DNA of 64,000 bases from Flavobacteriales bacterium. Its GTDB lineage: Bacteria > Bacteroidota > Bacteroidia > Flavobacteriales_D > Sanyastnellaceae. Made by a program: the position numbers and the translations under genes. Numbering within the stretch: position 1 is the first letter of the stretch; each line of letters opens with the position of its first letter. The stretch is from the NCBI GenBank assembly GCA_015665315.1, contig JADFAK010000019.1, positions 25,017 through 89,016 on the forward strand, in the 5' to 3' direction. Positions 818 through 51,319 of the stretch are shown here, in pieces. Under the pieces are notes generated by a model. The model worked only from the letters and a program-made list of their open reading frames with translations, was not told where the DNA came from and ran no database searches.

Positions 818-829
818 ATTGCAGCTTAT

Positions 830-3800: not shown

Positions 3801-3868
3801 CCCTTGGAACAACCGTCAAGATCAGACTCAAAGGGTCTTTGGTGGATCATGGGGATTGGGATAACTAG
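830..3868 (+). CDS. Propeller-type sensor histidine kinase (LytS-like kinase core)
   Basis: A 1012-aa membrane sensor. Residues 1-23 are a signal peptide. From ~25 to ~640 there are many two-component-regulator propeller repeats (pattern D-x-x-G-x-L-W-x-G-T), then a Y_Y_Y immunoglobulin-like domain to ~745, a transmembrane helix at ~755-778, a short coiled coil, and a His_kinase domain with MNPHFIFNSLNS (phospho-acceptor His ~811). The ATPase half shows ENAIIHG (~905) and DNGVG. The sensor part would be periplasmic. Such kinases normally pair with LytTR response regulators, but none is present in the window, so the kinase looks orphan here. The gene ends 38 nt before the left repeat of the genomic island. 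The ligand is unknown. Confidence 0.92.
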   Translation: MRIARWFFLHSILFLFFSLSANGQHYNFRNFSVRDGLAQSQVYTMLQDSRGYLWFGTRGGGISRYDGVSFLNYTLRDGLPNNTINCLIEGADHTLWIGTHDGLSQFDGRSFKNYRPLKGLSTEVECLTLDNEGKLWLGTEAGIFYLENDSLVHWNNGQDWAHETVYDMVFDHDGRLWGGTDRGLFCYSDSKFTLFDRRNAFNTNLVTCVDIDLDGNIWVGLYGDGVYQFSPTGLAKITEIQANEIFDLLFVADGSVWIATLENGALLYNPATDEVTPYSESEGLAVNQVRSLMEDDWGTIWMGTSGGGVSRFSGQQFQYFSTNNGLPGHQVYSITEDLSCNIWIGVGDQGLCRIDTESGIVSQDSVLNNGKIKALFTDLAGRVWVGSNGKGISIYDRDTVITLNMQSGLSSNWISAIELHGAKYYVATLGGGINILTPLDSTHRSFDVDIFSESRGVDNRISDMASDQNGRLWFCSLSAGVGVMLPNGDVLQFDESHGLPSTSVRSLAIDASGWLWLGMAGSGLARMNLNAEVLAFEQFESEVPLASDNVYFLQFDDEQNLWVGSESGIDKITLESDRIPLEVTHFGRQAGIVGVETCSNSAYKSSDGNLWFGTIDGLCRTTPSSKWRNTQAPKILIQNVNLFYKPLQETHLRSFVGPWGQVKDTLILTYDQNHLSFDFVGLDMLYPEKVSYQWVLEGEEEDWSPLSSRTSATYSNLQPGAYTFRVRSCNGDGICNEQEEIIRFNILMPFWQKTWFMIVAILAVVLIAISLYLIRIGRIRDEAREKNEKLNLEKSVIELEQKALRLQMNPHFIFNSLNSIQGLIAKEDAKTARLYLSKFSKLMRQTLENSREMMITLADEISALENYLDIEKFTHENRFDYKIECEVETEDFLIPPLVIQPFAENAIIHGLMPKGAGGQLLIRFAKDGDDLLVEIWDNGVGRKAAAANKAQRSNYHKSAGLEVTQERLDLLNGAETKSLEIIDVQDSVGNALGTTVKIRLKGSLVDHGDWDN

Positions 3869-3906
3869 ATTGGGTAAGACATTTGCGTTTATCGCTGAAA
3901 AAAGCC

Positions 3907-3959
3907 AAGAGAAAAGGGCCACCCCCACTGGAGATAGCCCTTTTCAACCTTTAACCTAT
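3907..3959. repeat. Left direct repeat of the island (candidate attL)
   Basis: This 53-bp segment recurs in the same orientation at 21127-21178. The last 31 bp (3929-3959 and 21148-21178) are identical. The first part differs only by one base deletion and one substitution near 3922-3928. The repeats enclose ~17.2 kb with two tyrosine recombinases and a restriction system, which fits attL/attR of a site-specific integration. The repeat contains a terminator hairpin. Confidence 0.75.
3912..3944. terminator. Rho-independent terminator inside left repeat
   Basis: Arms AAAAGGGC (3912-3919) and GCCCTTTT (3937-3944) form an 8-bp stem with an A-tract on one side and a T-tract on the other, so it can act in both directions. 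It lies 43 nt after the histidine kinase stop and is likely its terminator. The island probably integrated at this structure. Confidence 0.75.
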
Positions 3960-4101
3960 CCCGATGTTGATGTTAGGCATTGTTCGAGCATTTCTTCCAG
4001 ATGCACCGCCAATCCTGGGATTCCTCATTCTACGTCGTACATTTCGATACATCTCAGTACATCAAGAATGCCCCTTTTTTGACTGAAATGCCCTCAATAT
4101 G

Positions 4102-4116
4102 CCTCATCCAATGAGG
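4102..4116. promoter_or_regulatory. Dyad just upstream of the integrase promoter
   Basis: A perfect inverted repeat, CCTCAT-CCA-ATGAGG, ends one base before the -7 element at 4118. This is where a repressor or the recombinase itself could control the promoter. The binding protein is unknown; the excisionase-like protein encoded at 5354-5743 is one candidate. Confidence 0.4.
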
Positions 4117-4117
4117 G

Positions 4118-4125
4118 TAATTTTG
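4118..4125 (+). promoter_or_regulatory. Bacteroidota -7 element for the integrase gene
   Basis: TAATTTTG matches the Bacteroidota -7 consensus TAnnTTTG and lies 19 nt upstream of the ATG at 4145. No convincing -33 TTTG is seen at the expected distance. Confidence 0.5.
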
Positions 4126-4144
4126 GAGAAACAAATCAGTCATT

Positions 4145-5401
4145 ATGAAAAGGAATTTTTATTTACAGAATCCGTCGGCGGCCAAACCTACACCAATCAT
4201 TTTTACTGGAATCCAAAACGGACTCCGTAAACGCATCTCACTTGGAGAATCCATTAACCCCATTCATTGGGATAGTAAGAAGCAACTGCCAAAACCTGGG
4301 GCACGCAACGCAAAAAGGATACGTGAACTCATTGAGGCCGTGAATGGTCGGGTTACCGCTCTACAGCATGAAAAAGAGAGCAAAGGTAAAGTAGCACACA
4401 TCGACTGGATTTTCTATGAACTGCGGAGAGACGATTACAAGGACCCGCTTGAGTATGCTCCACATTATTTAGAAGTAAAAGGGCTTGGAAAGAAATCTCA
4501 TGAGCGATACAACCGACTGCTCAAGTACCTGGAAGACTTCAAGAGCAGAAAGGGAATTAGTCTTGATTGGAGTGCTCTGGACTCTATGTTCTTCAAAGAA
4601 TTCGACACCTATCTCAGAACTACCTGGAAGAACGGACGAACCACCAGAAACAGCTACTTCGGCACCTTAAAAACCATTATCAAAGCAGCACAAGACGACG
4701 GTCTTCATTCTAATGGGGCTTATAAATACTGGAAGATGAAAGTCATCAAGAACAAGCAGACTGCTCTCAATGATGAAGAGTTGTTTGCCATCCATTCACT
4801 AGCAATGCCAAATGAGCGTCTAGAACGCATTCGAGACATCTTCATCCTGAACTGTTACACTGGTCTCCGCTTCTCAGACTGGAATCTAAAACCTGAATTC
4901 ATAAGGGAGAAGAAGATTACAGCCATGAATCAAAAGACGAAGGAGATTGTCGAATTACCGATTCACCCGATAGCAAGATATTATCTGGACAAGTATGAAT
5001 CTGAGATTATCACACGAAGCTATAACACCGAATACTATTGTCTTCGAGACCTGTTTGAGTATCTGGCAGCAGAACTGGATTTCTTGAATGACGAACTACC
5101 CTATTGGATTGAGGTAGACGGGGAGTATATGAAGAGTTCCAGAAAGCGTGTAGATGCCATGGGAGCGCACACTGCTCGCAGGTCTTTTTGCTCGAACCTT
5201 TATCGCAACTCTGCGAAATATGGACTTACTGTTCGAGACATTATGGCTTTCAGTGGTCACACCTATGTAGATACCTTCATGAACTACATCTGTGTGGAAA
5301 GCAATATGGCAGAACAGGTGACTGAAGCAATGGAAAGGGAGTTCAATGAATTGCTAGCGGTGACGAGTGACCGACGTCCCCAGCGAATTCTTTTTGCCTG
5401 A
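4145..5401 (+). CDS. Tyrosine recombinase / integrase (island left end)
   Basis: A 418-aa recombinase of the type common on Bacteroidota mobile elements: an N-terminal arm-binding region, a core-binding SAM-like domain (~100-200) and a catalytic domain. Visible catalytic residues are Arg in TGLRFSDW (~241), His-x-x-Arg in AHTARRSF (~342/345), His in SGHTYVDT (~372) and the nucleophile Tyr in FMNYICV (~381), so all expected residues are present. It starts ~185 bp inside the left direct repeat, the usual place for an island integrase, and probably catalyses integration and excision between the 3907 and 21127 repeats. Its last 48 nt overlap the convergent HTH gene. Confidence 0.93.
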   Translation: MKRNFYLQNPSAAKPTPIIFTGIQNGLRKRISLGESINPIHWDSKKQLPKPGARNAKRIRELIEAVNGRVTALQHEKESKGKVAHIDWIFYELRRDDYKDPLEYAPHYLEVKGLGKKSHERYNRLLKYLEDFKSRKGISLDWSALDSMFFKEFDTYLRTTWKNGRTTRNSYFGTLKTIIKAAQDDGLHSNGAYKYWKMKVIKNKQTALNDEELFAIHSLAMPNERLERIRDIFILNCYTGLRFSDWNLKPEFIREKKITAMNQKTKEIVELPIHPIARYYLDKYESEIITRSYNTEYYCLRDLFEYLAAELDFLNDELPYWIEVDGEYMKSSRKRVDAMGAHTARRSFCSNLYRNSAKYGLTVRDIMAFSGHTYVDTFMNYICVESNMAEQVTEAMEREFNELLAVTSDRRPQRILFA

Positions 5402-5743
5402 ACGGCGTGTCTTGGATGGTTCAGTTTGCTCGGAATCAAGTTCGTGTCGCATGGCGATGCGGACTTGAGCACGGCTGAATAACAAGGCATTGCCTGACTT
5501 TCCTTGTGGCTCCTCACCTGAGGATTCAAGCCACGCTCGCACAGTACGTTTATCTCTTTTGAAGAATTCAGCCAGCTCAGGAACTGTGTGAGGAGTAGTC
5601 TCATCAATGCTGAATTCATCTTCTCGAATCGCATTTAAAAGACGAATTTCCTGGGCATTCTCCCTTGCTTCGAGAAATTGCTCAAAGACTTCCAATAACG
5701 GATAATACTTCTGAAATCTTTTGTGGTCTTCCTCACCGTACAT
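5354..5743 (-). CDS. HTH protein, excisionase/AlpA-like
   Basis: A 129-aa protein with an N-terminal helical segment and a central helix-turn-helix (~55-75, HTVPELAEFFKRDKRTVRAW), followed by a segment like the wing of excisionase/MerR-type DNA-binding proteins. It is convergent with the integrase gene and shares 48 nt with its 3' end, so the two mRNAs would be antisense there. The context suggests a recombination directionality factor or a regulator of the integrase. It could alternatively regulate the restriction operon upstream on the same strand. The basic C-terminal tail lies in the overlap. Confidence 0.65.
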   Translation of the reverse strand: MYGEEDHKRFQKYYPLLEVFEQFLEARENAQEIRLLNAIREDEFSIDETTPHTVPELAEFFKRDKRTVRAWLESSGEEPQGKSGNALLFSRAQVRIAMRHELDSEQTEPSKTRRSGKKNSLGTSVTRHR

Positions 5744-5753
5744 CGGGATGCAC

Positions 5754-5761
5754 TACCTTTG
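5754..5761 (+). promoter_or_regulatory. -7-like element facing a non-annotated region
   Basis: TACCTTTG fits TAnnTTTG on the plus strand. It sits 4 nt before an ATG that opens a 25-codon reading frame (5766-5843), in the gap upstream of the HTH gene. It may be a chance match. Confidence 0.3.
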
Positions 5762-5765
5762 CGAT

Positions 5766-5843
5766 ATGTCACCGCTGGTCAAACATCAACTGAGCAATTC
5801 TGCTGAGCTGTGCCAGGCTCTCTGGCGTCCCGAAAACAAATGA
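5766..5843 (+). CDS. Possible leaderless 25-aa peptide
   Basis: ATG to TGA encodes 25 residues including SAELCQALWRPENK, which reads like a helical protein fragment. It starts 4 nt after a TAnnTTTG element. It could be a leader peptide, the remnant of a lost gene or chance. No function is proposed. Confidence 0.2.
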   Translation: MSPLVKHQLSNSAELCQALWRPENK

Positions 5844-5960
5844 TTGGAGGGGTGAAAATTAACCCTGTTCAAAGATGCAACGGGAGTAATATACGGTCAG
5901 AAGTAAAAAAGGTTTCATAATGAGCCAATTTCTTGTGTACGCGTGAATTAGGGCAAGGTT

Positions 5961-6842
5961 TCAATTGAAGTTCTGGGCCAAGCCGTTCGCCGAATCCCGC
6001 AACCCTTCGAGTTGGCCTCGCACATTTCCGAGATTCGTTGCCAAATATCCCTTCTCCATATTTATCTCATTGAGTGCCATGTTGCATCGCTTTAATGATG
6101 GCCCCACTTCTTGGGTATAATCATCAGCGATGTTAGCAACAATCAAATCAATGGCTGGTAAAATGAAATCATCTTGCACTTGGAAGAAAGGAATGTTTCC
6201 AGTCTGGAGATGAGGCTTTAAGTGAGCGACGAAAAGTTCGTCGACCTGCCTAAGGAATTCGTTTTCTTTGAAATTCTGTCCTTCCTTTTCTAGCTGACGT
6301 ATTATCGAAGAAAAAGCACCTAGGAATTCATTGAGACCAAGCTTGAATTCGTTCACTTGTGCAGATGAATTGTTCTTGTATTCAAGGAATTTTTCCTGAA
6401 CAGTCTCCAAGTGAGTTTCTGCGATTCCAAAGTAGGAGACTATCTGGTTGGCTCTGGTCGTCGCTTGTTCCTTGGTCAGCTTAAATCTATTGCGACTCAA
6501 ATAGGATTGTAGCGAAGACTTTGGTAGCGATTTTGCAGTTTCACATTTCAACTGGGTTGTAATTCCTAACTCTGGCGACTCAAGAACTGGCTTGTTGTGT
6601 TCATCAAGGAATTCGTCAATCTGGTCGATTTGCTTCTGCACTGGAGTTGCCAAGTACTTGAGTTCGCCAATCCATTTCTTTCCATCACGATTCTCTCTCC
6701 GTCGTTCGAAAAAGACATCCAGAACTCTGTCAAGAGCAGCTCCAAGAATCAATGTGATAATTGGCAATCCAATTTCCCAAAACTTCGATGCTCCATTCTC
6801 ACCGCCAATTATCGAAATATCAATATGTAGAAGTGTGTCCAT
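5961..6842 (-). CDS. Membrane-anchored helical protein, last gene of the restriction operon
   Basis: A 293-aa protein I do not recognise. One hydrophobic segment near residues 22-40 (WEIGLPIITLILGAALDRVL) is followed by a basic stretch (FFERRRENRDGKKW) and a long, mostly alpha-helical, charged region. This predicts an N-terminal membrane anchor with a cytosolic helical domain. It begins 12 nt after the hsdR stop, so it belongs to the same transcript. Single-pass anchored helical proteins occur as effectors or partners in several defence systems, but nothing in the sequence proves that role here. It has no nuclease or protease motif I can see. Confidence 0.75.
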   Translation of the reverse strand: MDTLLHIDISIIGGENGASKFWEIGLPIITLILGAALDRVLDVFFERRRENRDGKKWIGELKYLATPVQKQIDQIDEFLDEHNKPVLESPELGITTQLKCETAKSLPKSSLQSYLSRNRFKLTKEQATTRANQIVSYFGIAETHLETVQEKFLEYKNNSSAQVNEFKLGLNEFLGAFSSIIRQLEKEGQNFKENEFLRQVDELFVAHLKPHLQTGNIPFFQVQDDFILPAIDLIVANIADDYTQEVGPSLKRCNMALNEINMEKGYLATNLGNVRGQLEGLRDSANGLAQNFN

Positions 6843-6854
6843 AGTTATACATAT

Positions 6855-9239
6855 TTACCCCACCTCCTCATACAAGTACCCCTGGAACCCAACAAACACC
6901 TCACGAATTGAGATTGGGTCTCCGAGAGCTGCTTTTGCATCGGCGATGGAGTCGTATTTCAGTTTAAGTAGTTTCGATAGTCTTTCGTCGTCGAGTTCTT
7001 CCACGCCTTTCTTGACATAGTTCTTCAGCACAAAGTCAAGGAATTCCTGTTGTGCTGGGTCGTAGTCGTTGAAATGAATCTTAGCTCGTTCTGCGCGACT
7101 GGTACGAGACTTCATTGTGCTATCATAGGCCACATAGGCCAAGACATCAAAGAGGTCAGAATCCTTGCCGTCGACGATGTCCTGTAGCTCCTCTAGATGG
7201 TCTGGCGAATAACCTTTTTCTTTCAGTTCATCTAGCAATTTTCTACGGGTGCCTGGCATACTCCAAATTCGGCGTAACTCCTCTTCGTCCTTGAGCAGCT
7301 CAGGGAGTTCCTTAAACAGCAGCTTTAAAAAATCCGCTGCCGATATAATTTCACCCTTTGGACCATAAAAGCTGGTCTTAACGTTGCTTTTAATCGAACG
7401 TTTTGTTCCATCTCCAAACTCGACTTCGGTGAGGTAATCTGAAGGGGGTTCTCCTATACATACGCAAGGCCAATTTTCGCAAACTGGACATTCTTCTGGT
7501 GGTGTCTTTTCACAAATACAAGGTTTTTCACCACACACCTTACATTTCTTTTTTGGCATTGGCTCATATGGTTCTGGCTCCAATGGCTCGCCATCCCATT
7601 CAGGGTCTTTGAAGTGGAAATGGTTGTTGCAGAAGTCATAGATGGTGAAGTAGTCCTTTCCATCAAAGAGTCGGGTTCCACGCCCTACGATTTGCTTGAA
7701 CTCAACCATGCTTTTCACAGGACGTAAAAGCACAATGTTTCTGACCTCAGGTGCATCGACTCCTGTACTCAACTTTCTGGAAGTCGTGAGTATTGTTGGT
7801 ATTGCTTTCTCGTTGTCTTGAAAATCTCGAAGGTGCTGCTCACCAATTCCTCCATCATCTGCAGTTACTCGATGACAGTAGTTCGAGTTCATCGTATCCG
7901 AAAGCTCATTAATCAGGTCACGAACCATAGCGGCATGACGCTGGGTTGCACAAAAGATGAGTGTCTTCTGACTCTGAATCATTTGCTGAAGCAAAAGCTT
8001 TACACGGTGTTTCTCCCGATGTCGGACTTCGATTATTCTGTTGAAATCGTTCTCTGTGTATGTTCTTTGTTCATCAATTTCCCCTGAAACCACTTTGTCG
8101 CCTGCAGCAAATTGATAGCTATCGATATTCGAACTGATTTCTTTCAAACGGAATGGCGTAAGGAAGCCGTCTTCGATTCCTTCTTTCAGAGAATACTGAT
8201 ACACTGGTTCTCCGAAATACTTGTAGGTATCTCCGTTCACATCTCTCTTTGGTGTAGCGGTCAAACCCAGTTGAACTGCTGGGGAGAAGTACTCAAGAAT
8301 AGCTCTCCATTGACTTTCATCACTCGCACCCCCACGATGACACTCATCTATAATGATGAAGTCGAAGAAATCTTCTGGGTACTCTCCGAAGTATGGTGTG
8401 TCATCAGGCCCCGACATGAAGCTTTGGAAGATGGTAAAGAAGAGATGTCCGTTCTTGGGCACTCTTCCCTTTTTTTTGACTTCGCTTGGTCGGATTCTGA
8501 CCAAGGCATCTTCTTCGAATGCTCCAAACGAGTTAAATGCCTGGTCCGCTAAAATATTTCTGTCTGCTAGGAATAGAATTCGCGGTCTTCTGGAACCATC
8601 TCGTTGCAGGTTCCAATGCGATTCAAATAACTTCCAGGCTATCTGGAAAGCGATGGCTGTTTTCCCTGTTCCCGTTGCTAACGTGAGCAGGACACGTTGC
8701 TCTTTTCTTGCAATAGCTTTGAGAACACTTTCTATAGCATTCTCTTGGTAATAACGCGGTTGCCAGAATCCTCCATTTGTTTCAAACGGGGTATCGAAGA
8801 AGCGCTTCTCCCAATCCGAAATTTCAATAGTCTCCTCCGTTTTTGGATGAGTAAAAGTCATCTTCCATAACTCTTCTGGAGTAGGGTAGCCAGTCACATC
8901 CGATTCGATGCCTGAGGCCATATCCGCAAAACGGATTTTATCTCCGTTGGTGGCATAGGTATATCTGAGTCTTAATCGTTCAGCATAGTCTTTGGCTTGA
9001 GGGAGACCTTCAGTGTAATATTTATCTCTTGCTTTGGCTTCTATGACCGCCAAGCGCTGACCTTTGTAGTACAATACGTAGTCCGCAAAGAGCGGAGTCT
9101 TTCTGCGACCTTGACCAATGAGTCTACCCTTGGTTACAGGGTATTCCCGATGAATGCGAGTTCCTTCCACAACACCCCAGCCTGCAGCTCTTAGAGCAGG
9201 TTCAATTAATTCGGCTTTGGTGTTGGATTCGTTCATCAA
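6855..9239 (-). CDS. hsdR: Type I restriction endonuclease subunit R (HsdR)
   Basis: A 794-aa ATP-dependent translocase/nuclease. The N-terminal HSDR_N nuclease domain shows D53 and E67-A-K69 (ADYVLYYKG...VIEAKA). Helicase motifs follow: Walker A ATGTGKT (188-194), DECH box (298-301), LTATP (~326-330) and GRGTRLF (~519-525). Between the motor and the EcoEI-type C-terminal domain lies a cysteine-rich linker (566-594) with two copies of CxxC-x4-CxC. The usual DUF4145-like N-terminal extension seen in many HsdR proteins is absent but is encoded by the gene immediately upstream, with a 4-nt ATGA overlap. HsdR cleaves DNA after translocation by the HsdM/HsdS-bound complex. All key residues look intact. 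Confidence 0.95.
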   Translation of the reverse strand: MMNESNTKAELIEPALRAAGWGVVEGTRIHREYPVTKGRLIGQGRRKTPLFADYVLYYKGQRLAVIEAKARDKYYTEGLPQAKDYAERLRLRYTYATNGDKIRFADMASGIESDVTGYPTPEELWKMTFTHPKTEETIEISDWEKRFFDTPFETNGGFWQPRYYQENAIESVLKAIARKEQRVLLTLATGTGKTAIAFQIAWKLFESHWNLQRDGSRRPRILFLADRNILADQAFNSFGAFEEDALVRIRPSEVKKKGRVPKNGHLFFTIFQSFMSGPDDTPYFGEYPEDFFDFIIIDECHRGGASDESQWRAILEYFSPAVQLGLTATPKRDVNGDTYKYFGEPVYQYSLKEGIEDGFLTPFRLKEISSNIDSYQFAAGDKVVSGEIDEQRTYTENDFNRIIEVRHREKHRVKLLLQQMIQSQKTLIFCATQRHAAMVRDLINELSDTMNSNYCHRVTADDGGIGEQHLRDFQDNEKAIPTILTTSRKLSTGVDAPEVRNIVLLRPVKSMVEFKQIVGRGTRLFDGKDYFTIYDFCNNHFHFKDPEWDGEPLEPEPYEPMPKKKCKVCGEKPCICEKTPPEECPVCENWPCVCIGEPPSDYLTEVEFGDGTKRSIKSNVKTSFYGPKGEIISAADFLKLLFKELPELLKDEEELRRIWSMPGTRRKLLDELKEKGYSPDHLEELQDIVDGKDSDLFDVLAYVAYDSTMKSRTSRAERAKIHFNDYDPAQQEFLDFVLKNYVKKGVEELDDERLSKLLKLKYDSIADAKAALGDPISIREVFVGFQGYLYEEVG

Positions 9240-10879
9240 TCAGATTTTAAAGTTTGCAGTTGCCCGTGAATCTTTGCTGGCCATTCATTTCTTATCCACT
9301 GATTTTCCTCACCTCTTGGGTATGGGTGGTAATAGTGAAATTCTTTGCCAGGCTTCGTCCATCCGAACATCTCTCTGCCTGATGGCACAAGGACTTTGTT
9401 GAATATCTGCTTCTTTATGCTGAAGCCTGATTCGTTCATTCCCCACGCCATGATGACAGGACTAGCCTCCGACAATTCAGTTAGTAAGCCATCCAATTCA
9501 TTTCTTCGGTCAGAATGAAAAATCGATTCTTCAAGCAATGACTTGTCCGAGATATATCGCTCAAAAACATTTCTCGAATCAGTATCACAAATGTCAAATA
9601 GGTTGATAACAGCGACGAAACTCCACCCCCTTAAGTTCATTAACCTGCAAATTTGATATTGAGTAGAATCTGGGCTGCACGGAACTAGCCGAGTTTTCTC
9701 AGCGTCAAGTGGAACTTTATCCTGAAAGTCATCGGAGTTCAGGGGATAACTACCTCCAGGGTTTATCATAATCACGAGGGCATCATAGCTCACTGCTGTT
9801 TGTTCCTTTCTTTTCACTGTGAGCAAATTTCTATACCCTACATGCTTCACTTTATAGTAAGAACCGAAAAAATCAAACTCTTCATTCAGCTTGTCTTGCT
9901 GAGCTAATTCGTCCATTTGGCGATTCTTGTCCTTCATTTTGGCAGAGACCTCTTGAATCAACTTTTGAAGTAAGAGGGAGGGTGTTCCAAATCGACGTTT
10001 GTCAAATTTCAGAACAAGGTTCATTTCATCAAATGTTCCAGCCAGCACAGCATTCACTGCACAGCCAGGAGTCTTTTCAAGAAACATTTTATAGAAATCA
10101 CTCTGTTGGTAGCGACCTTTAGAAATCAACAGCTTTTCCTTTGCTCCTCCTTCATTTTGAAAATACTTGACCGCATAGAAAGGATTCTCCAGATACTTGA
10201 AGTTCAAATAAACTCTTCCCCAAATCAACCCTGTTTGCTCTGTCAATCCAACATCCAAAAATTCAGGTTCAGGTTCTTCCACCTGGGACTGAAACTCTGA
10301 AAGCATGTTTGCCCTTTCAGACTCCATCTCTTGTCGAAGAGTTTCGAGCTGCTTGATGTGTTCTTCTTCCTGAGATTGAAATTTAGCCAGATACTCCTCC
10401 TCAACCATTTCTTCTGGAAGCTTAATAGGCAATAAATCCTTATTAAAAACTGGGATTGTGTCGTGATTGTCGAGAACATTTACGTAGAACCACTCAAGTA
10501 CATCTCTTAAAAGCCCCAATAGCCGAACCGCCTCTTTGTCGTTGAATTGGGCAAGTTTCTTCCCTGAAGATTCATGGGTAGCACTATTTGCTAAATCCCT
10601 TGCGGTATCCCATTTATTAAATATTCCTACGTCTGTATCATGCATTAATTCTTCAAAGCACTCTAGGTAAATGAGTTCACCTATCGTGTAGTGCTTCTTT
10701 CTGCCTTCTCTAGGAATGGACAGTAATGGGTGAGAGGCATAGGATTTATGGACGATTTGTTCTAAAGCTCTCCTTGCCTTCCAGCCTGATAATTCAGGTA
10801 TAGTGAGGCAATACTTCTCCGCTTCAACTAAGTTGTTATAAAATGCCTGTCCATATGTGAAGTCGAAATTGGATTCCAT
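9236..10879 (-). CDS. DUF4145-like / DUF1643-like fusion protein in the restriction operon
   Basis: A 547-aa protein using ATG at 10879 (a TTG at 10888 is the alternative). Residues ~5-145 resemble the DUF4145 domain normally found at the N-terminus of HsdR proteins (R-x-A-L-E-x-I-V pattern, then LL-x-L-x-x-V-x-x-W-F). A glutamate-rich coiled coil follows (~155-200), then an unrecognised middle region. Residues ~365-490 resemble DUF1643 (MINPGGS, D-S-T-x-x-x-C-R, VAVINLFD, VIMAWG). It lies between a small gene and hsdR and overlaps hsdR by 4 nt, so expression is coupled. The domain calls are from memory of the families. A role in supplying the missing HsdR domain in trans is inference. Confidence 0.7.
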   Translation of the reverse strand: MESNFDFTYGQAFYNNLVEAEKYCLTIPELSGWKARRALEQIVHKSYASHPLLSIPREGRKKHYTIGELIYLECFEELMHDTDVGIFNKWDTARDLANSATHESSGKKLAQFNDKEAVRLLGLLRDVLEWFYVNVLDNHDTIPVFNKDLLPIKLPEEMVEEEYLAKFQSQEEEHIKQLETLRQEMESERANMLSEFQSQVEEPEPEFLDVGLTEQTGLIWGRVYLNFKYLENPFYAVKYFQNEGGAKEKLLISKGRYQQSDFYKMFLEKTPGCAVNAVLAGTFDEMNLVLKFDKRRFGTPSLLLQKLIQEVSAKMKDKNRQMDELAQQDKLNEEFDFFGSYYKVKHVGYRNLLTVKRKEQTAVSYDALVIMINPGGSYPLNSDDFQDKVPLDAEKTRLVPCSPDSTQYQICRLMNLRGWSFVAVINLFDICDTDSRNVFERYISDKSLLEESIFHSDRRNELDGLLTELSEASPVIMAWGMNESGFSIKKQIFNKVLVPSGREMFGWTKPGKEFHYYHPYPRGEENQWIRNEWPAKIHGQLQTLKSD

Positions 10880-10888
10880 CGAAGTCAA

Positions 10889-11140
10889 TCAGTCGTAAAA
10901 ACTGTTTAAGTCGTTTTCTCTGTACAGCAGGATAGTACCGTAGTTTCCAAAATCAGGCTCACTGTTCTTCGTGCTTTTGCCGAGGGATAAAAGTTCTTTT
11001 GCCTCACGACCATTGGTAGCTGTGCTGTTATCAGAATGGCCTACTTTCTTTTTATAAGTCCAGATTGACATCCAGTCCTCACCATCGATTCTGTAATGTC
11101 CATTTGAGATGTATTCGGGGTCTCCTTTTTTATAGCTCAT
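10889..11140 (-). CDS. Small 83-aa protein of the restriction operon
   Basis: An unrecognised 83-aa polar protein containing the segments YRIDGEDWMSIWTYKKKVGH and YGTILLYREND. It has no signal peptide or membrane segment. It begins 22 nt after the KAP NTPase gene and ends 9 nt before the ATG of the DUF4145/DUF1643 protein, so it is part of the same transcript. It may be an accessory subunit or inhibitor, but nothing in the sequence decides this. Confidence 0.7.
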   Translation of the reverse strand: MSYKKGDPEYISNGHYRIDGEDWMSIWTYKKKVGHSDNSTATNGREAKELLSLGKSTKNSEPDFGNYGTILLYRENDLNSFYD

Positions 11141-11162
11141 AGATATCTAAGGTTTTGTCGAT

Positions 11163-12581
11163 TCAGTTATCATCGTTCGTTTGAAGGTCTGCAATCAGGC
11201 TAATCTTTTCAGTTAGAGCGTGTATCTTCAAGTTTCCACCTCTGAAGTTGTTTCCATATGCTCGGACGAATTCTCCTAAACGACCAGGTTCCTTTGTACT
11301 AAAGAGTGATTGAAGGCTATCCTCATCTCCATCGATATGAACACTAAACTGAAAGTCATTCGACTTGAAATTGAGGGAGTTGTGGTAAGTCAAAAGAAAC
11401 CGAGCCTCCATTCCTAATAGAGCATCTTCAAACTCCTCTGAAACTTTCTTCGGGAAAAACGCTCTTAGTTTTTCCTGAATTTCTTTCACCTCAAATTTCT
11501 GAGATACTATGCCTTGATAGAAGGCTTTGTCCTTGAGTCTGATTACAAGGAGAACCAGCAGTAGCTCTGGAAACGCGTAGCTATTTTTTCTGAAACACAG
11601 GATGGCAGCTTTTAGATTGGCTAAAGTTTTTTCCTGTTCTCTCAAGCTGAGGTCTAGCTCAATGAACATTAGATTGGATAGTACAATCAGATTCCTGCCA
11701 TCGTTTTTAAGTTCTTCATGGTTGGAGCGAAATTCTGACTCGAAGTATTCCGAAAAACTAAAGTGTTTGTACAGGAATTTAACGAAATCCAGATTGTTCG
11801 GTCTAGGTAAGGAGTATTCAAGGTCGATGAAGCGCCGTAAATACTCTGAAGCATCCATCTGTTCACTGCCATATACACCCCGTACCGCGTGTTTTAGCTG
11901 AGTTTTATCTATAGACAAAACAAAGACGATACCCTTGACATCAAAGAAGTGTTTCATCACCTCCAAAGTATGCACGGCATAGTCTGGGCGACAACGGTCC
12001 AACTCGTCAATGAAGAATACCAAAGGCTTCGATTCGAGTTTCGATAGAAGCTTGGTCAAGTCACTTTTGAAGTCGTACAGTCCTTTCTTTTTTTCAGCGT
12101 ATTCCTTTATAGATTCGGCCAATCCGTCTGAAGCAGCTTCGGTGACTCCTTCAATTAGCCCAGAGGCAAATTCCTCATCCGTCAACCTTCGTACGATTGC
12201 CTTAGCAAGCTTAGGGATAAGCTTTGGAGCAAGAGGCCCAGCTCTCTTGACTAATTTCTTGAAGGAAGTTAAATTCTTTTTCTTGAAGAACTCCAGCTCG
12301 CTCAATTCAGCAAGAATCGAGGTTAATGCATCCTGTTCGAAGTCATTCTCCCATGCATTGAAATAGATGGTTTCTATTGATTGATTGCTTAGGTATTGAC
12401 GCCACATCTTCACAAAAGTGCTTTTCCCTGTACCCCAGGGATTATCCAAGGCCAATACCATTCCGTCATCATGGGTCTTAACGATTTCGGATAATATCTC
12501 AGCATAGCGTTTCCGACCAAGCGCACACTTGGAAAATGGGTTGTTCTCGTCAATTGATATTTCTGGCGAACGAACACTCAT
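11163..12581 (-). CDS. KAP-family P-loop NTPase
   Basis: A 472-aa STAND-like NTPase with Walker A NPWGTGKST (47-55) and Walker B VFFIDELDRC (~188-197), followed by the characteristic YAVHTLEVMKHFFDVKGIVF segment of KAP NTPases. The typical membrane helices inserted in KAP domains are not obvious; the insert at ~105-150 is basic and only mildly hydrophobic, so the protein may be soluble. It overlaps hsdS by 4 nt (12578-12581), so it is translationally coupled to the restriction genes. KAP NTPases occur in several anti-phage loci. Acting as an ATP-driven regulator or sensor for the restriction complex is inference. Confidence 0.88.
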   Translation of the reverse strand: MSVRSPEISIDENNPFSKCALGRKRYAEILSEIVKTHDDGMVLALDNPWGTGKSTFVKMWRQYLSNQSIETIYFNAWENDFEQDALTSILAELSELEFFKKKNLTSFKKLVKRAGPLAPKLIPKLAKAIVRRLTDEEFASGLIEGVTEAASDGLAESIKEYAEKKKGLYDFKSDLTKLLSKLESKPLVFFIDELDRCRPDYAVHTLEVMKHFFDVKGIVFVLSIDKTQLKHAVRGVYGSEQMDASEYLRRFIDLEYSLPRPNNLDFVKFLYKHFSFSEYFESEFRSNHEELKNDGRNLIVLSNLMFIELDLSLREQEKTLANLKAAILCFRKNSYAFPELLLVLLVIRLKDKAFYQGIVSQKFEVKEIQEKLRAFFPKKVSEEFEDALLGMEARFLLTYHNSLNFKSNDFQFSVHIDGDEDSLQSLFSTKEPGRLGEFVRAYGNNFRGGNLKIHALTEKISLIADLQTNDDN

Positions 12582-13765
12582 ACCACAACCTCCTTCTCAG
12601 TTAACTCACCAGAAAATGCTTTTTGGAGAAGGGATTCTTTTAGCATGCTCACTTTGACCAACTTGGATACGTATTTCATTGATATATCAAGAATGCTTCT
12701 CTCTAGTTCTGTAAGTTCTTGCACAATTTTATCCTGGTAGTCCAGGGGAGGGACATGAAGCTTGTAGTTGCGCATAGACTTCAAGGAAAAGTTCTTGATT
12801 GTGGCCCCTGTTGACTCCGCTGACATATTGTCGAAAAAAAGTGGGCTCTTAATCAAGTACTTGATATAATGCTTATTTACTTCATCATGAAAGTTTATAT
12901 AGCATGCACTCTTTCCAAGAATTATCGGTTCATGGTTATAGAATGCGACTTTCCCTAAAGTGCCATTTATAGAAACTAGCACTGTGTTTGGAGTAAGCGG
13001 TCGAGAATACTTATGATATTCCTCTTCACTGATTCTCTTCGTATTCTCTTTTATCTCAATCTCTCCGTTATTTAGGTTATTACCATTGATAAAGAAGTAT
13101 TGACCCGATTCATCATACTTTGGAGTTCCATGAAGGCCATCACCTATTCGGCTTGAGAGCTGTTCAAATGTCTTCTCCTCCCAACCATCACCTTCCTGCC
13201 CAAACAGCTCATTCAACTTACTCTGAAACAACTCCTCCGCATTCTTAATATTCCGCTCAATATTCGCCTGGGCCTGGTCGATGGCCTCGAAGGCCTGGTC
13301 CAGGATGGCTACGATGCGTTTTTGTTCGGGGAGAGGGGGGAGGGCGATTTGAATTCTTCTTAAATCATCATTATACAATCTTGAAATAGTTGCCCCTTTA
13401 GATGGATTCCAATCACAATAACCATAAAAAGCATACAAGTATTCATTAGAAACTTGTGACTCATCATTCGCTATCCAAACAATATTTGAATCTTGGAAAT
13501 AGGCAGGTTCGCCATCATAAATAACTCTTCTTCCAATTGTTCCAGAAGCGGAAATTAGTATGTCTCCTTTTTTAGGAAATGAATACTTTTCTTTGAATTC
13601 CGTATAGATTTCATTCGAAATAAATGCATTAGCCTCCTTTCCAAAAGTTCCAATTTTGTAAAAAGGGATTCCACTTTCAGAATTGGTTTGTTTCTTAAGA
13701 ATCCTTTTGCACATCGAAACTTTGCCAATATCCCCTAACGATTTAATTACCCAATCTTCACTCAT
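12578..13765 (-). CDS. hsdS: Type I restriction specificity subunit (HsdS)
   Basis: A 395-aa DNA-recognition subunit built of two target-recognition domains with a conserved helix after each. The first TRD (~1-145) ends in PPLPEQKRIVAILDQAFEAI and a coiled coil. The second (~200-330) ends in VPPLDYQDKIVQELTEL and a coiled coil with LLQKAFSGELTEKE. The two TRDs are dissimilar, so the target should be bipartite and asymmetric. ATGA overlaps with hsdM (13762-13765) and the KAP gene make it the central gene of the operon. The recognition sequence cannot be read from the protein. Confidence 0.93.
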   Translation of the reverse strand: MSEDWVIKSLGDIGKVSMCKRILKKQTNSESGIPFYKIGTFGKEANAFISNEIYTEFKEKYSFPKKGDILISASGTIGRRVIYDGEPAYFQDSNIVWIANDESQVSNEYLYAFYGYCDWNPSKGATISRLYNDDLRRIQIALPPLPEQKRIVAILDQAFEAIDQAQANIERNIKNAEELFQSKLNELFGQEGDGWEEKTFEQLSSRIGDGLHGTPKYDESGQYFFINGNNLNNGEIEIKENTKRISEEEYHKYSRPLTPNTVLVSINGTLGKVAFYNHEPIILGKSACYINFHDEVNKHYIKYLIKSPLFFDNMSAESTGATIKNFSLKSMRNYKLHVPPLDYQDKIVQELTELERSILDISMKYVSKLVKVSMLKESLLQKAFSGELTEKEVVV

Positions 13766-15216
13766 ATCAACTCCTTAATTGATTCAAGAATTGACTTTGT
13801 CTCTGAATCCAAATTCTCCATTTCCGCCAGAATCTCAGCTGGACTTCTCAACGGAGCTTCTTCTGGTTCGTTGGGATTCTTTACACTGAGGTCAAAGGTG
13901 TCTTCGTCGATACTGGTCACATCCAGATTCCAGGATTGCTCTGTCTCTGGCTTGGTGTTGGAAAACTCTACAAACTCCTTGAGGTCGTTATCGTTGAGAG
14001 GATTGGTCTTGCCCATATTTCGACCTGGGTCCAACTGATAGAACCAAGTGTTCTTTGTCGGCTCACCTTTCTTGAAGAATAGCACAACCGTTTTCACACC
14101 CGCACCAAGGAAAGTTCCTGAAGGCATATCCAAAACCGTGTGCAGGTTGCAAGTTTGCAGTAGATGTTTTCTCAAGCTAACCGAAGCGTTGTCTGTATTG
14201 CTCAGGAAGGTGTTCTTGATAACAATAGCCGCACGTCCACCTGTTTTCAAACTCTTGATGAAGTGCTGTAGGAAGAGGAAGGCAGTCTCACCAGTTTTGA
14301 TGTCAAAGTTCTGTTGGACTTCTTTTCTCTCCTTTCCACCAAATGGCGGATTGGCCAGAATCACATTGTATCTGTCTTTCTCCTGGATATCGCGTATGCT
14401 CTCCCCAAGGGTATTGACATGCTGTATGTTTGGAGCTTCGATTCCATGAAGAATCATGTTCATGACCCCAATCACATAAGCCAGGTTCTTTTTCTCCTTT
14501 CCATAAAGCGTCTTTTCCTGGAGTGTTTTTAGGTTATCAGTGGTCTTCTCCATGCGGTCATAGATGTACTCATATGCCTCACACAAAAAGCCTGCAGAAC
14601 CCACTGCTCCATCGTACACCTTGTCTCCAATCTTCGGTTTCAGCACCTGAATCATGGCTCGAATCAAAGGTCGGGGAGTGTAATACTGTCCACCATTGCG
14701 ACCAGCATTCCCCATGTTCTTGATTTTCGTCTCGTAAAGGTGGCTCAGTTCGTGCTTGTCTTTGGAAGAGCGAAACGGGAGTTCATCAGCCAATTCCAGA
14801 ATCTCACGAAGGTTGTACCCGCTTTGAATCTTATTCTTTAGCTCAGAGAATATCTCCCCAATTTTATATTCGATGCTGTCGGGGTTATCGGACTTCGCTT
14901 TGAATCCTGCGAGATATGGAAAGAGTTCCAGGTCGACAAACTGCACCAGGTCAGGACCTGTCTTAGCCACATGATGGTCCAGCTTGCCATCGCCGCCTTT
15001 AGGCATAGCCCAGATAGGCCATCGGTATTTTTCGTCCAGAATATAGTGGTAGGGCTTTCCTTCTAATGCAGCAGTATCCGCCTTCTCTTGCTCCAGCTCA
15101 TCCAGATAACGAAGAAAGAGTACCCAGGACGACTGCCCAACATAATCCAGTTCACTATCAGCACCTGCATCCTTGTACAGGATGTCATCTATATTCTTGA
15201 ACGTCTGTTCGAACAT
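13762..15216 (-). CDS. hsdM: Type I restriction adenine methyltransferase (HsdM)
   Basis: A 484-aa N6-adenine methyltransferase. I place the start at the ATG at 15216 (MFEQTFKNIDDILYK), because the 38 extra upstream residues of the open frame overlap the XRE gene in another frame. The N-terminal HsdM_N domain spans ~1-160. The SAM-binding motif is YDGAVGSAGF (~201-210, a variant of DPxxGSGGF), and the catalytic motif IV is NPPF (~289-292). With HsdS it methylates the host recognition site and forms the core of the restriction complex. It starts 5 nt after the XRE stop. Confidence 0.95.
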   Translation of the reverse strand: MFEQTFKNIDDILYKDAGADSELDYVGQSSWVLFLRYLDELEQEKADTAALEGKPYHYILDEKYRWPIWAMPKGGDGKLDHHVAKTGPDLVQFVDLELFPYLAGFKAKSDNPDSIEYKIGEIFSELKNKIQSGYNLREILELADELPFRSSKDKHELSHLYETKIKNMGNAGRNGGQYYTPRPLIRAMIQVLKPKIGDKVYDGAVGSAGFLCEAYEYIYDRMEKTTDNLKTLQEKTLYGKEKKNLAYVIGVMNMILHGIEAPNIQHVNTLGESIRDIQEKDRYNVILANPPFGGKERKEVQQNFDIKTGETAFLFLQHFIKSLKTGGRAAIVIKNTFLSNTDNASVSLRKHLLQTCNLHTVLDMPSGTFLGAGVKTVVLFFKKGEPTKNTWFYQLDPGRNMGKTNPLNDNDLKEFVEFSNTKPETEQSWNLDVTSIDEDTFDLSVKNPNEPEEAPLRSPAEILAEMENLDSETKSILESIKELI

Positions 15217-15221
15217 GTAAA

Positions 15222-15443
15222 TCAGTTTAAGTCTTTGCGTTCCACTAAAAGCTCGGACACCTCGACATCCAACAATCCAGCGACCCGATACAGGTCTTCC
15301 AAACCAGGCTGCACCTGATTCGTGACCCAAAGGGACATGGTGTTCTCACTCTTACCCAGTTGCTGAGCCAGCCACTTCTGACTTCGCCCCTGAGCTTTTA
15401 GGATTTCCTTGAGCTTATTCAATGGAATTCTTTCTATGCGCAT
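15222..15443 (-). CDS. XRE-family regulator, first gene of the restriction operon
   Basis: A 73-aa helix-turn-helix protein (MRIERIPLNKLKEILKAQGR, then QKWLAQQLGKSENTMSLW) of the Cro/C1 type. The start is at ATG 15443; the open frame upstream is low-complexity and not protein-like. Its position just before hsdM, 5 nt apart, and an inverted repeat 25-68 nt upstream of its start suggest an autoregulatory controller protein that delays restriction until methylation is established. That role is inferred from the context. Confidence 0.85.
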   Translation of the reverse strand: MRIERIPLNKLKEILKAQGRSQKWLAQQLGKSENTMSLWVTNQVQPGLEDLYRVAGLLDVEVSELLVERKDLN

Positions 15444-15813
15444 AAAGATAGATTTAATATAGATGAAAATCCCAATGAGAGTTGGATTTGATAATGCGTG
15501 AAATTGGGATTGGAGAATGTGAAAGGATTCGACGTAGATGTGAAGAACTTTTCTTTTGCCCATTTGACAAGGGATTCAACCCTATTTCCGTAGGAAATCA
15601 TAGAAGGCAACTTGATTTTCTGAAAATCTATGATAATTATTAGCAGCATCATCTCGATGAAGTAACCACGGCGATTAAGGAGGAGTCTCAAACTTCCTCC
15701 ACGCCACATCGGGAAAATGCGTGGTTACATATCAATTCCAGCTATTCCAACATTATAAAATGAGCAGAGGAACACCATCTCCGCAAAGGTTGGGGTCTGT
15801 TTAATCCAGAAAG
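15444..15813. other. 370-bp gap between the restriction operon and a divergent gene
   Basis: This region separates the minus-strand XRE gene from the plus-strand gene at 15814. Apart from the inverted repeat at 15468-15511, I see only AT-rich sequence. A TATCTTTA near-match to the -7 element (minus strand, 15442-15449) abuts the XRE start, and no full consensus promoter is found. Two overlapping minus-strand open frames here look non-coding. Confidence 0.5.
15468..15511. promoter_or_regulatory. 9-bp inverted repeat upstream of the XRE gene (candidate operator)
   Basis: AATCCCAAT (15468-15476) and ATTGGGATT (15503-15511) are perfect reverse complements, 26 bp apart. They lie 25-68 nt upstream of the XRE start. 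The spacing suits two operator half-sites or an RNA stem-loop in the leader. Confidence 0.45.
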
Positions 15814-16479
15814 ATGTATACACAAGAACTGCAACGAAATCAAATAGAGGATGCCTTCGACATCGTCACCAGAGACCTGCCTGCAGAGTTCTATGGATAT
15901 ATGGTCACTATCCAGTTGCCTAGACACCATCTTTGGGTTGACTACGCCAAGCTGATACCCTACGAGGATAAAATTCGTTTTGAGAATGCCAGGGTCATTC
16001 GCATTCCAGAGTTTGAACGAGATACAGCAACGGGTATCAAGGGTGATTACAATCCCTCAAGGATGCACCTTCACCTATCCGTGTTTACCGATGAGGATGT
16101 CAATGCACTCATCGATGCGTTGAATGCCAACGAAGACTTTGATGCCATCTTCCATGTGAGGAGAGAAGACAACAGGGGAAAGCACATTGGCTATGTGATT
16201 AAGCAAGCTGGCCTCAAAGAACTGCCACCCATCACGATAGAATATCATGAATCATTTAACGAAGAAAAGAAAGCGGCAGAGCCGCAAGCAGCAATTGAAT
16301 TAGCTGAAAAGCTTGAAAGAGAGTTGAGTTTATCGACCGAACCATCCCATAGCCAAGACACTTTGCGTGAATCCATCGAAGTTCCAACCTGGCCCTACTT
16401 CTGGTCTTTGTTAGTGCACGCTGCGAAAACCGCAATAGGCGTGGTGACCTGCCTATTCAGTTTCCCCAGGGACGGCTAA
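15814..16479 (+). CDS. Hypothetical protein with C-terminal hydrophobic segment
   Basis: A 221-aa protein I do not recognise. The first ~150 residues look like a compact globular alpha/beta domain with the segments FYGYMVTIQLPRHHLWVDYA, PSRMHLHLSVFTDEDVNAL and NRGKHIGYVIKQAG. A charged linker follows (EEKKAAEPQAAIELAEKLE), then a short C-terminal hydrophobic stretch (WPYFWSLLVHAAKTAIGVVT). It is divergent from the restriction operon across a 370-bp gap. A palindrome begins right after its stop. Function is unknown. Confidence 0.7.
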   Translation: MYTQELQRNQIEDAFDIVTRDLPAEFYGYMVTIQLPRHHLWVDYAKLIPYEDKIRFENARVIRIPEFERDTATGIKGDYNPSRMHLHLSVFTDEDVNALIDALNANEDFDAIFHVRREDNRGKHIGYVIKQAGLKELPPITIEYHESFNEEKKAAEPQAAIELAEKLERELSLSTEPSHSQDTLRESIEVPTWPYFWSLLVHAAKTAIGVVTCLFSFPRDG

Positions 16480-16480
16480 G

Positions 16481-16492
16481 CCCTAATTAGGG
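16481..16492. repeat. 12-bp perfect palindrome CCCTAATTAGGG
   Basis: A self-complementary 12-mer directly after the stop of the 15814 gene. It shares the CTAATTAG core with the palindrome GCTAATTAGC at 16521-16530, 40 bp on. There is no loop or T-tract typical of a terminator, so a protein-binding site is more likely. Confidence 0.4.
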
Positions 16493-16520
16493 GGTTAAAT
16501 AAGCGTATCAATAGTAAGAG

Positions 16521-16530
16521 GCTAATTAGC
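16521..16530. repeat. 10-bp palindrome GCTAATTAGC
   Basis: Second palindrome with the CTAATTAG core; centre-to-centre distance to the first is 39 bp. Confidence 0.35.
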
Positions 16531-16932
16531 AACGAACATTTAGTGGTGACCCTACCCCTCAGAAATTTTTTTCTAGTTTTTTTAGCTTCATTATCTGACC
16601 CCTCTGAATCGGTAGTACCCTCATTTTCTTGCGTTAGAATAACGGATTGCCCTTTTTTGGGATAAATTTTGTGCATTTGGGCTAAGGGTCGAATGTTTTG
16701 TTAGCCTTCTGATTCTTGTTGACCCCCACTTTTTGGCTGAATCCAGCAAGTTGAATCCTAACCAAACCTGCATGAAATCGCACCATTTTAGTGAAGAAAT
16801 GGAGACATCAATTACGACCCAGTCAATGGCTTTACAGTAATGACCAATTGACGGGGGAAACGGATAAGAGAGAAACAGTAACGAATACTCCTAATCCAAG
16901 TATCCTGTTCCGTTTGTTTCTAGTTTTATGAT

Positions 16933-17277
16933 ATGAAAACAGAAAAGAGACAAACTAAATGGCGCAACGGCAAAATTCATGAGGAATACGAAGTATTCAT
17001 CTTCGAGTACAAAGGAGAGCCCAAATGTGTAAAAACTGGAACATCGAAGAACTACGAAGTGGATGGTATTTTGAAGGAAGAATGTGATTATGAAATCACG
17101 ACATACCGCGACAGAGAAGGTAATTCATTTTATGGCCACTCGAAGAAGACCAAAAAGCACTATGCCATCAACGGTGGGTTAAAGAACACTGAAACTTGGG
17201 TTCCTGTATATGGTTCTCCGTATGGAGGACCTGGAAGCTTGCACACCTTTACGCTGAAGGAAAGAATTGAACACTGA
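16933..17277 (+). CDS. Hypothetical 114-aa protein
   Basis: A small polar protein with alternating strand-like segments (EVFIFEYKGEPKCVKTGTS, then ECDYEITTYRDREGNSFYG) and a Gly/Pro-rich C-terminus. It has no signal peptide or membrane helix. The ATG lies after an AT-rich leader. Codon use and composition look coding. I do not recognise the family. It is an orphan cargo gene in the island. Confidence 0.6.
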   Translation: MKTEKRQTKWRNGKIHEEYEVFIFEYKGEPKCVKTGTSKNYEVDGILKEECDYEITTYRDREGNSFYGHSKKTKKHYAINGGLKNTETWVPVYGSPYGGPGSLHTFTLKERIEH

Positions 17278-17478
17278 AACGCTGTCCTAAATTATCGCCT
17301 TAAACCTCGCTAAAAGACCACTATTTGGAAGGTTTTTAGAAGGTCAAACTTGAGGAGAAGTCAGAACGATTGTTTCGTAGACTTTCCACGCATATTGCAA
17401 TAGTTCTTGTAAGGATTATTGCGACGTATCAATTTGTAAAAATCAAAATTTAGTACATTGAGTTGAAAATTTCCTCTT

Positions 17479-17631
17479 ATGCCAACATGGAAAGTTATAT
17501 ATCGACTCAATGGTCGAGGACCCTACAGTGAAGAAGTTCAGGCTTCAAACAGTTCAGATGCGCGTCGTTTGATTGAATCTAAATATGGAAAAGACGTTAG
17601 TGTTGAGCGCTGCGGAGTGGCGAAATATTAG
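17479..17631 (+). CDS. Small 50-aa protein (MPTWKVIYRL...)
   Basis: A 50-residue frame starting MPTWKVIYRLNGRGPYSEEV and continuing with QASNSSDARRLIESKYGKDV. The pattern is a beta-strand pair, then a Ser-rich turn and a helix with Ala-Arg-Arg. This resembles small alpha/beta proteins often attached to mobile elements. It is flanked by non-coding DNA on both sides. The amphipathic pattern and lack of stops support coding, but no homologue was checked. Confidence 0.5.
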   Translation: MPTWKVIYRLNGRGPYSEEVQASNSSDARRLIESKYGKDVSVERCGVAKY

Positions 17632-17710
17632 AATTGAGAGCAAATTCCAAATGCCATGTAGGTTTGAATCCACCTTTACCAAGGTTAATAATCTTCACGG
17701 GTAGGTCTGA

Positions 17711-18024: not shown

Positions 18025-18090
18025 CCAGTAATAATCAGAAAGGAGTATTTTACGTTCAAAGAATTTGCAATTGCTTACTCGCCTCACGTC

Positions 18091-19368: not shown

Positions 19369-19451
19369 GCCTACAATGAGTCAGAATTTGGAGGGGGAGT
19401 GAAATAGTGAATACTTTTTTTATATCAACCAATTAAAATTCCAACTATACT

Positions 19452-51257: not shown

Positions 51258-51299
51258 GTTTTAAAAATTATTCCCTGAGTTGCACTTGCACAAAGCAGG

Positions 51300-51307: not shown

Positions 51308-51319
51308 TTTTTTAAATAC

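What the first reader, a model, noticed from the sequence alone, without database searches (positions are those of the whole stretch)
5961..15443. Type I restriction operon with four embedded accessory genes: candidate composite defence system
Eight minus-strand genes are packed with gaps of 22 nt or less and three 4-nt overlaps: XRE, hsdM, hsdS, KAP NTPase, 83-aa protein, DUF4145/DUF1643 fusion, hsdR, membrane-anchored protein. Classic type I loci have only hsdRMS. A KAP NTPase and a membrane-anchored partner suggest an added sensing or abortive arm. The architecture is seen directly; the function is inferred.
Basis: partly seen in the sequence, partly recalled or inferred. Interest (0 to 1): 0.8.

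Follow-up and report, generated by a model that had tools for sequence, protein, structure and literature searches.

The report
Restriction operon carrying glycosylase-like arm
A bacterial DNA-cutting defence operon carries an extra protein that joins a module otherwise found on the cutting subunit itself to a domain predicted to resemble base-removing enzymes, so the operon would likely also attack viruses that disguise their DNA; extra genes packed into such operons were common in the related loci compared.

Summary
In detail: eight minus-strand genes, packed as described, around an intact-looking EcoAI-type hsdM-hsdS-hsdR core. Embedding as such is not special: 28 of 34 comparison loci with hsdS before hsdR have extra ORFs between them. 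No other genome searched has this set. The KAP NTPase is a full-length match to PDC-S20, a catalogued defence candidate, rarely beside hsd genes elsewhere. The membrane protein returned only itself.

Best reading: a type I enzyme with a trans-acting, HsdR-linked arm, likely a base-excision effector against modified phage DNA (Brig1-like logic). Linkage is well supported, the fold moderately, activity untested.

The parts
15222..15443 (-). XRE/Cro-type HTH regulator, 73 aa (likely operon regulator)
   Evidence: HTH_3 33.4 bits over cut-off 23; 5 nt upstream of hsdM
13762..15216 (-). hsdM, N6-adenine methyltransferase subunit, 484 aa
   Evidence: N6_Mtase 211 bits; PADLOC MTase_I 531 bits; ANPPF motif read
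12578..13765 (-). hsdS, specificity subunit with two target-recognition domains, 395 aa
   Evidence: two Methylase_S stretches, 158 bits
11163..12581 (-). KAP P-loop NTPase, 472 aa, match to PADLOC defence candidate PDC-S20; Walker A NPWGTGKST and Walker B LVFFIDELDR read from sequence
   Evidence: PDLC04959 487 bits, residues 1-466 of 472; KAP_NTPase 148 bits
10889..11140 (-). 83-aa protein, likely partner of gene 6
   Evidence: four stand-alone relatives; same domain in the C-terminal part of gene 6-like P0008-P0011 (BLASTP 3e-20 against P0010)
9236..10888 (-). gene 6, 550 aa: DUF4145-like module, middle domain, DUF1643 domain
10286..10879 (-). gene 6 N-terminal module, homologous to the N-terminus of long HsdR subunits; likely HEPN fold
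9929..10270 (-). gene 6 middle domain ('WGRVY...YGTPSxLL'); elsewhere a separate 121-134-aa gene in type I operons
9239..9883 (-). gene 6 C-terminal DUF1643 domain, predicted uracil-DNA-glycosylase-like fold
6855..9239 (-). hsdR, EcoAI/FtnUII-type restriction and translocation subunit, 794 aa, without the DUF4145 module
   Evidence: NF046051 785 bits over cut-off 550; ResIII, HSDR_N, EcoEI_R_C
5961..6842 (-). 293-aa protein with one candidate transmembrane helix; orphan
   Evidence: no family; only itself returned from 5.8 billion proteins, 960 candidates scored; hydropathy

Best explanation
The locus is a type I restriction-modification operon with an added arm: the 550-aa protein encoded just before hsdR joins the N-terminal module of long HsdR subunits, a middle domain found elsewhere as a separate gene in type I operons, and a DUF1643 domain that is predicted to have a uracil-DNA-glycosylase-like fold and would likely excise modified bases from phage DNA. 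Proposed working: HsdM2S protects host sites and HsdR translocates and cuts unmodified invading DNA (inferred from family). Gene 6, probably with the 83-aa protein, would sit on the HsdR/RM complex through its HsdR-type module, in place of the module that long HsdRs carry in cis (inferred from fusion and adjacency). Its C-terminal domain would then remove altered bases from phage genomes that evade recognition or cutting by base modification, leaving abasic sites that block phage replication, the logic reported for Brig1 and Brig3. The KAP NTPase is best read as a separately embedded defence candidate sharing the promoter, the XRE protein as the likely regulator, and the membrane protein is unassigned.
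Confidence: 0.33

Rival explanations
1. Independent cargo in a hotspot: the KAP NTPase, 83 aa plus gene 6, and the membrane gene are unrelated defence genes that settled between and after hsdS and hsdR and share only the promoter; none works with the restriction enzyme.
For: 28 of 34 comparison loci have other ORFs at the same place, among them Schlafen/AlbA_2 with HATPase and a HipA-like kinase. Hsd genes were detected beside KAP in only 1 of 14 other genomes. PMC12255303 describes DarTG2 in the same slot with a small repressor in front and calls the site a potential recombination hotspot (passages).
Against: Does not explain why gene 6 carries the HsdR N-terminal module, or why its middle domain recurs as a separate gene in type I operons in four of five genomes. 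Fully compatible with the KAP and membrane genes.
Confidence: 0.35
2. HEPN RNase arm: gene 6 is a dormant RNase held by the restriction complex and switched on when restriction is inhibited, cutting RNA and aborting infection, as PrrC does with EcoprrI (recalled).
Against: The basic residue lies 8 positions before the histidine, outside the Rx4-6H spacing (spacing recalled); 5 of 21 rows have K there; the same module sits permanently on many HsdRs; it leaves the DUF1643 domain unexplained.
Confidence: 0.2
3. One reading: the KAP NTPase and the membrane protein sense infection or restriction failure at the membrane and abort the infected cell.
For: KAP is an intact-looking P-loop NTPase of defence candidate PDC-S20 and more distantly like PifA and QatA; one candidate TM helix in the 293-aa protein.
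Against: The two genes are separated by three others; no relative of the membrane protein was found, so no co-occurrence can be shown; KAP was found elsewhere without it (no phmmer match to the membrane protein in the 17 KAP loci).
Confidence: 0.1
4. Repair or regulation: the DUF1643 domain acts on host DNA or nucleotides, limiting self-damage by the restriction enzyme, instead of acting as a weapon.
For: No functional study of DUF1643 is apparent in the listing of the 13 library papers that mention it, and it is common in phage contigs, which do not need anti-phage effectors.
Against: Fusion to an HsdR module next to a defence candidate favours an effector role; nothing seen here links DUF1643 to host repair.
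Confidence: 0.1

Closest known systems
RptR-RMS-DarTG2-metallopeptidase (RRDM) island of enteropathogenic E. coli (PMC12255303, passages read)
   Same: Small regulator first, then type I genes with defence genes embedded between hsdS and hsdR, and one gene downstream; reported there as active against selected phages
   Different: Embedded unit is the DarTG2 toxin-antitoxin, regulator is RptR rather than XRE; no KAP or DUF4145 mention in the text search of that paper
Long type I HsdR with N-terminal DUF4145 (e.g. loci L035-L044, L306-L321)
   Same: Same N-terminal module, in two genomes with the middle domain as the immediately preceding gene
   Different: There the module is in cis on HsdR; here it is on a separate protein that also carries a DUF1643 domain, beside a short HsdR
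Brig1 and Brig3 anti-phage DNA glycosylases (PMC11078745 and preprint PMC13160076, passages read)
   Same: UDG superfamily; found among defence genes; Brig1's best structural match, Sulfolobus tokodaii UDG, is the best VIA match here
   Different: No HEPN or HsdR module is described in the passages seen; activity shown there and not here; no sequence comparison was made
PADLOC PDC-S20
   Same: KAP NTPase matches the model end to end (487 bits)
   Different: An S-class candidate; PDCs are described as single-gene or putative candidates, mostly unvalidated (PMC12988326, passages); here inside a type I operon

Membership tests
Type I restriction-modification system, EcoAI/FtnUII type | HsdR over the NF046051 cut-off, HsdM with N6_Mtase, HsdS with two recognition domains, in one operon | tested here: met
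   785 bits vs 550; 211 bits vs 20.4; two Methylase_S stretches
Type I restriction-modification system, EcoAI/FtnUII type | ATP-dependent restriction and modification in vivo | not testable with these tools
   needs a cloned operon and phage assays
PDC-S20 (PADLOC candidate) | full-length match to the model | tested here: met
   PDLC04959 1.7e-146, residues 1-466, model 1-462 of 464
DUF1643 (PF07799) | score over the gathering cut-off | tested here: met
   23.3 vs 22.5 bits; hhalign 92-95% against classical members
DUF4145 (PF13643) | score over the gathering cut-off for this protein | tested here: not met
   not listed for gene 6 at E 0.1 or for P0001 at E 0.01; 7 of 11 family members match at E 0.01, so it is called DUF4145-like here
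HEPN fold | structural match to solved HEPN domains | tested here: inconclusive
Uracil-DNA glycosylase superfamily | fold match to solved UDGs | tested here: inconclusive
Uracil-DNA glycosylase superfamily | sequence-profile match (Pfam UDG PF03167 or hhalign) | tested here: not met
   no Pfam hit at E 0.1; hhalign DUF1643 vs UNG 30-33% with the first motif out of register, gene 6 C-domain alone 0.2%, family-4 UDG 0.1-1.5%. Control: family-4 UDG vs UNG, relatives by established knowledge, also gives 0.2%, so the test is insensitive. Hence 'UDG-like', not filed as a UDG
Brig-type anti-phage glycosylase | base excision from modified phage DNA | not testable with these tools
   needs enzyme assay

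The most novel reading that the evidence does not exclude
A type I restriction enzyme with a glycosylase subunit: the N-terminal HEPN-type module of HsdR has been detached, joined to a type I-associated middle domain and loaded with a UDG-fold DUF1643 domain, so that one complex cuts unmodified DNA and strips bases from modified phage DNA, with the 83-aa protein as an exchangeable partner domain. DUF1643, so far without a known function, would be a new family of base-excision enzymes shared by phages and their hosts.
Probability: 0.23. Interest if true: 0.82.

Novelty: new variant of a known kind. Interest (0 to 1): 0.55.

Why it matters
Phages defeat restriction enzymes by modifying their bases. 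A restriction operon that carries its own base-excision arm, attached through a piece of the restriction subunit, would close that escape inside one complex. The modular evidence makes two open questions directly testable: what the DUF4145 module does on HsdR, and what the phage-common family DUF1643 does. It also shows how to separate a likely partner gene from mere cargo in the hsdS-hsdR slot: by fusion and adjacency of its domains elsewhere, not by embedding alone.

Tried and rejected
Embedding as evidence of function: rejected as a sole argument, since 28 of 34 comparison loci have ORFs in the same slot. ORFs are mechanical; of 67 loci scored, 24 have hsdR before hsdS and 9 lack one of the two genes in the stretch held, leaving 34; the 19 long-HsdR loci among them had been chosen for their N-module match, and one (L040) has an 8.3-kb gap whose hsdS may belong to another operon.

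KAP as the key gene: 17 loci in 14 other genomes were examined and only G070 had hsdM/hsdS matches beside it, in the order Nmad3 protein, 104 aa, KAP, hsdM, hsdS, EcoR124-type hsdR. Several of these loci lie near contig ends and divergent hsd genes can escape phmmer with the window's proteins, so this is a lower bound; the neighbours in the other loci were not annotated.

Membrane protein: the protein search returned only itself; nothing further was done.

Collections without relatives: gene 6 alignment and KAP in genome contigs; gene 6, C-domain, 83 aa and middle domain in viral contigs; middle domain in plasmids. The pattern-based scans are insensitive, so absence there is weak. Gene 6 in plasmids gave only the DUF1643 part in 2 Paenibacillus records. 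P0010 in plasmids gave 15 records, all matching query residues 1-222 at most; 13 of the 15 are annotated as DEAD/DEAH helicase or restriction subunit R.

Structure: the whole-protein model gave HEPN entries for the N-terminus and esterases with one TDG row for the C-terminus; a separate C-domain model with 6 gene 6-type and 27 phage DUF1643 rows was then made.

Mobility: no tRNA in the window and no direct repeat of 15 bases or more in 1-20000, so no att site was found.

Literature: 'PDC-S20' does not occur in the 10 papers listed, a search too broad to say more. DUF1643 is mentioned in 13 library papers (listing; passages of one, describe it as insertion-sequence cargo). A glycosylase in a type I operon was not seen in the titles and abstract starts listed (10 of 24 papers; 12 of 284). 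The preprint on embedded defences cited in PMC12255303 was not read.

Full report
WHAT IS THERE. The window is bases 25017-89016 of contig C4 of a 4.6-Mb genome in 219 contigs. Eight minus-strand ORFs run from 15443 to 5961 with the gaps claimed: XRE, hsdM, hsdS, KAP NTPase, 83 aa, gene 6 (550 aa), hsdR, 293 aa. The RM core looks intact: HsdM shows ANPPF, HsdR shows ATGTGKT and DECH helicase motifs and a D...EAK nuclease-type motif (motifs recalled, read), HsdS has two recognition domains, HsdR scores 785 bits against a cut-off of 550 for the EcoAI/FtnUII family.

HOW UNUSUAL IS THE EMBEDDING. EcoAI-type HsdR was found in 77 of 395 phylum genomes at E 1e-100. Forty of the 84 listed matches, long ones away from contig starts and none from the over-represented genus g60, were fetched with up to 12 kb upstream and 5 kb downstream. 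Together with 11 loci of the first long-HsdR search and 16 of the order search, 67 loci were scored: in 34 hsdS precedes hsdR, and 28 of these 34 have at least one same-strand ORF of 100 aa or more in between (9 of 15 with short HsdR, 19 of 19 with long HsdR). In 24 hsdR comes first and in 9 one gene was not found. Extra genes in this slot are therefore the rule in this sample, and PMC12255303 calls it a potential recombination hotspot (passages). None of the 67 loci has a KAP match, and matches to the middle domain, the 83-aa protein or the gene 6 C-domain occur only in L306-L309.

KAP. The protein matches PADLOC's PDC-S20 end to end. PDC families are putative candidates found by 'guilt by embedding' (PMC12988326, passages). 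PDC-S20 at E 1e-30 occurs in 15 of 395 phylum genomes; of 14 other genomes only G070 showed hsd genes beside it. KAP relatives also occur in 29 plasmid and 4 phage-collection records at E 1e-20. It is best read as separate cargo.

MIDDLE DOMAIN. The order search also returned the middle domain alone, with the A1 model, which did not contain these sequences: E 3.7e-17 (G413), 1.5e-16 (G499), 2.8e-20 (G668, a stretch with stops in the search's own reading; a clean 121-aa ORF is there) and 1.8e-14 (G656). Gene maps: in G413 hsdM, hsdS, 193 aa, middle domain (124 aa), 3 nt, hsdR (1171 aa with the N-module); in G499 the middle domain (122 aa) lies 10 nt before hsdR (1162 aa); in G668 it lies 473 nt before a DUF4145-bearing hsdR; in G656 a 259-aa protein with the domain lies next to a 79-aa homolog of the 83-aa protein (E 4e-12 with a profile that did not contain it). 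A further search of 100 order genomes with a middle-domain alignment gave 16 matches: the window's, G413, G417, and 13 that hit only the tail of the G656 protein. In G417 the domain (134 aa) lies 43 nt after hsdS in an operon hsdR, RhuM, hsdM, hsdS, middle domain. Four of five genomes thus place it in a type I operon. It has no Pfam match.

THE 83-AA PROTEIN. It has four stand-alone relatives (43-71% identity). The same domain forms the C-terminal part of P0008-P0011, after the N-module and middle domain and in place of DUF1643 (42% over 83 aa, E 3e-20; P0009 has a further stretch behind it). In the window the two genes abut. This fusion-and-adjacency pattern makes a physical or functional partnership likely. 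It is rare: 1 of 100 order genomes, the window's own.

MECHANISM. Shown: gene content, packing, domain homologies, fusions and adjacencies. Inferred: that gene 6 binds HsdR or the RM complex, that the 83-aa protein is its partner, that the C-domain removes bases from modified phage DNA. Precedent: Brig1 removes alpha-glucosyl-hmC and Brig3 removes 5hmC from T-even phage DNA, both UDG-superfamily enzymes found among defence genes (PMC11078745 and preprint PMC13160076, passages). A restriction enzyme is what modified phage DNA evades, so adding such an arm to it would be adaptive. The chief rival for the whole set is independent cargo; for gene 6, an RNase role of the HEPN-type module.

VERDICT. 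Observation confirmed; interpretation partly supported. KAP and membrane genes look like ordinary or unassignable cargo. The 83 aa / gene 6 unit is a new variant of a known kind: a type I accessory built from HsdR's own N-module with a predicted glycosylase-like end.

Noticed in passing
window 4145-5401 (+) and 18091-19368 (-): Two tyrosine-integrase-type genes bracket the restriction operon (Phage_integrase itself is below the Pfam cut-off in both; the left one is over the cut-off for Phage_int_SAM_5 and Arm-DNA-bind_5); no direct repeats of 15 bases or more were found in 1-20000, so island borders are unknown.
   Followed up: partly
window 5354-5743 (-): 129-aa HTH_17-like protein between the operon and the left integrase, with sub-threshold matches to MAD1 of the methylation-associated defence system (E 0.059) and a weak match to terminase small subunits (E 2e-4).
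   Followed up: no
window about 7440-7560 (-), inside hsdR: Cysteine-rich insert (CKVCGEKPCICEK...CPVCENWPCVC) between helicase and C-terminal domain of HsdR, possibly a metal-binding hairpin (read).
   Followed up: no
L051 9160-11941: KAP NTPase of the same family directly before hsdM, preceded by a 104-aa gene and an Nmad3 (nucleotide modification associated) protein, in an operon with EcoR124-type hsdR.
   Followed up: partly
L127 10298-11956 and L136 7420-9057: In two genomes the hsdS-hsdR slot holds a protein of the same architecture, Schlafen/AlbA_2 plus HATPase.
   Followed up: no
L308 4594-16945: Methyltransferase fused to a specificity domain and a HATPase domain, then 380 aa, middle domain, DUF4145-bearing HsdR, TBP-TOTE protein and a TPR protein: a possible composite conflict system.
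   Followed up: no
   Followed up: partly
window 46030-52922: FAD oxidoreductase, MMPL-acyltransferase-methyltransferase fusion and aromatic amino acid lyase side by side, suggesting an aryl-polyene/flexirubin-type pigment cluster (naming recalled; domains).
   Followed up: no
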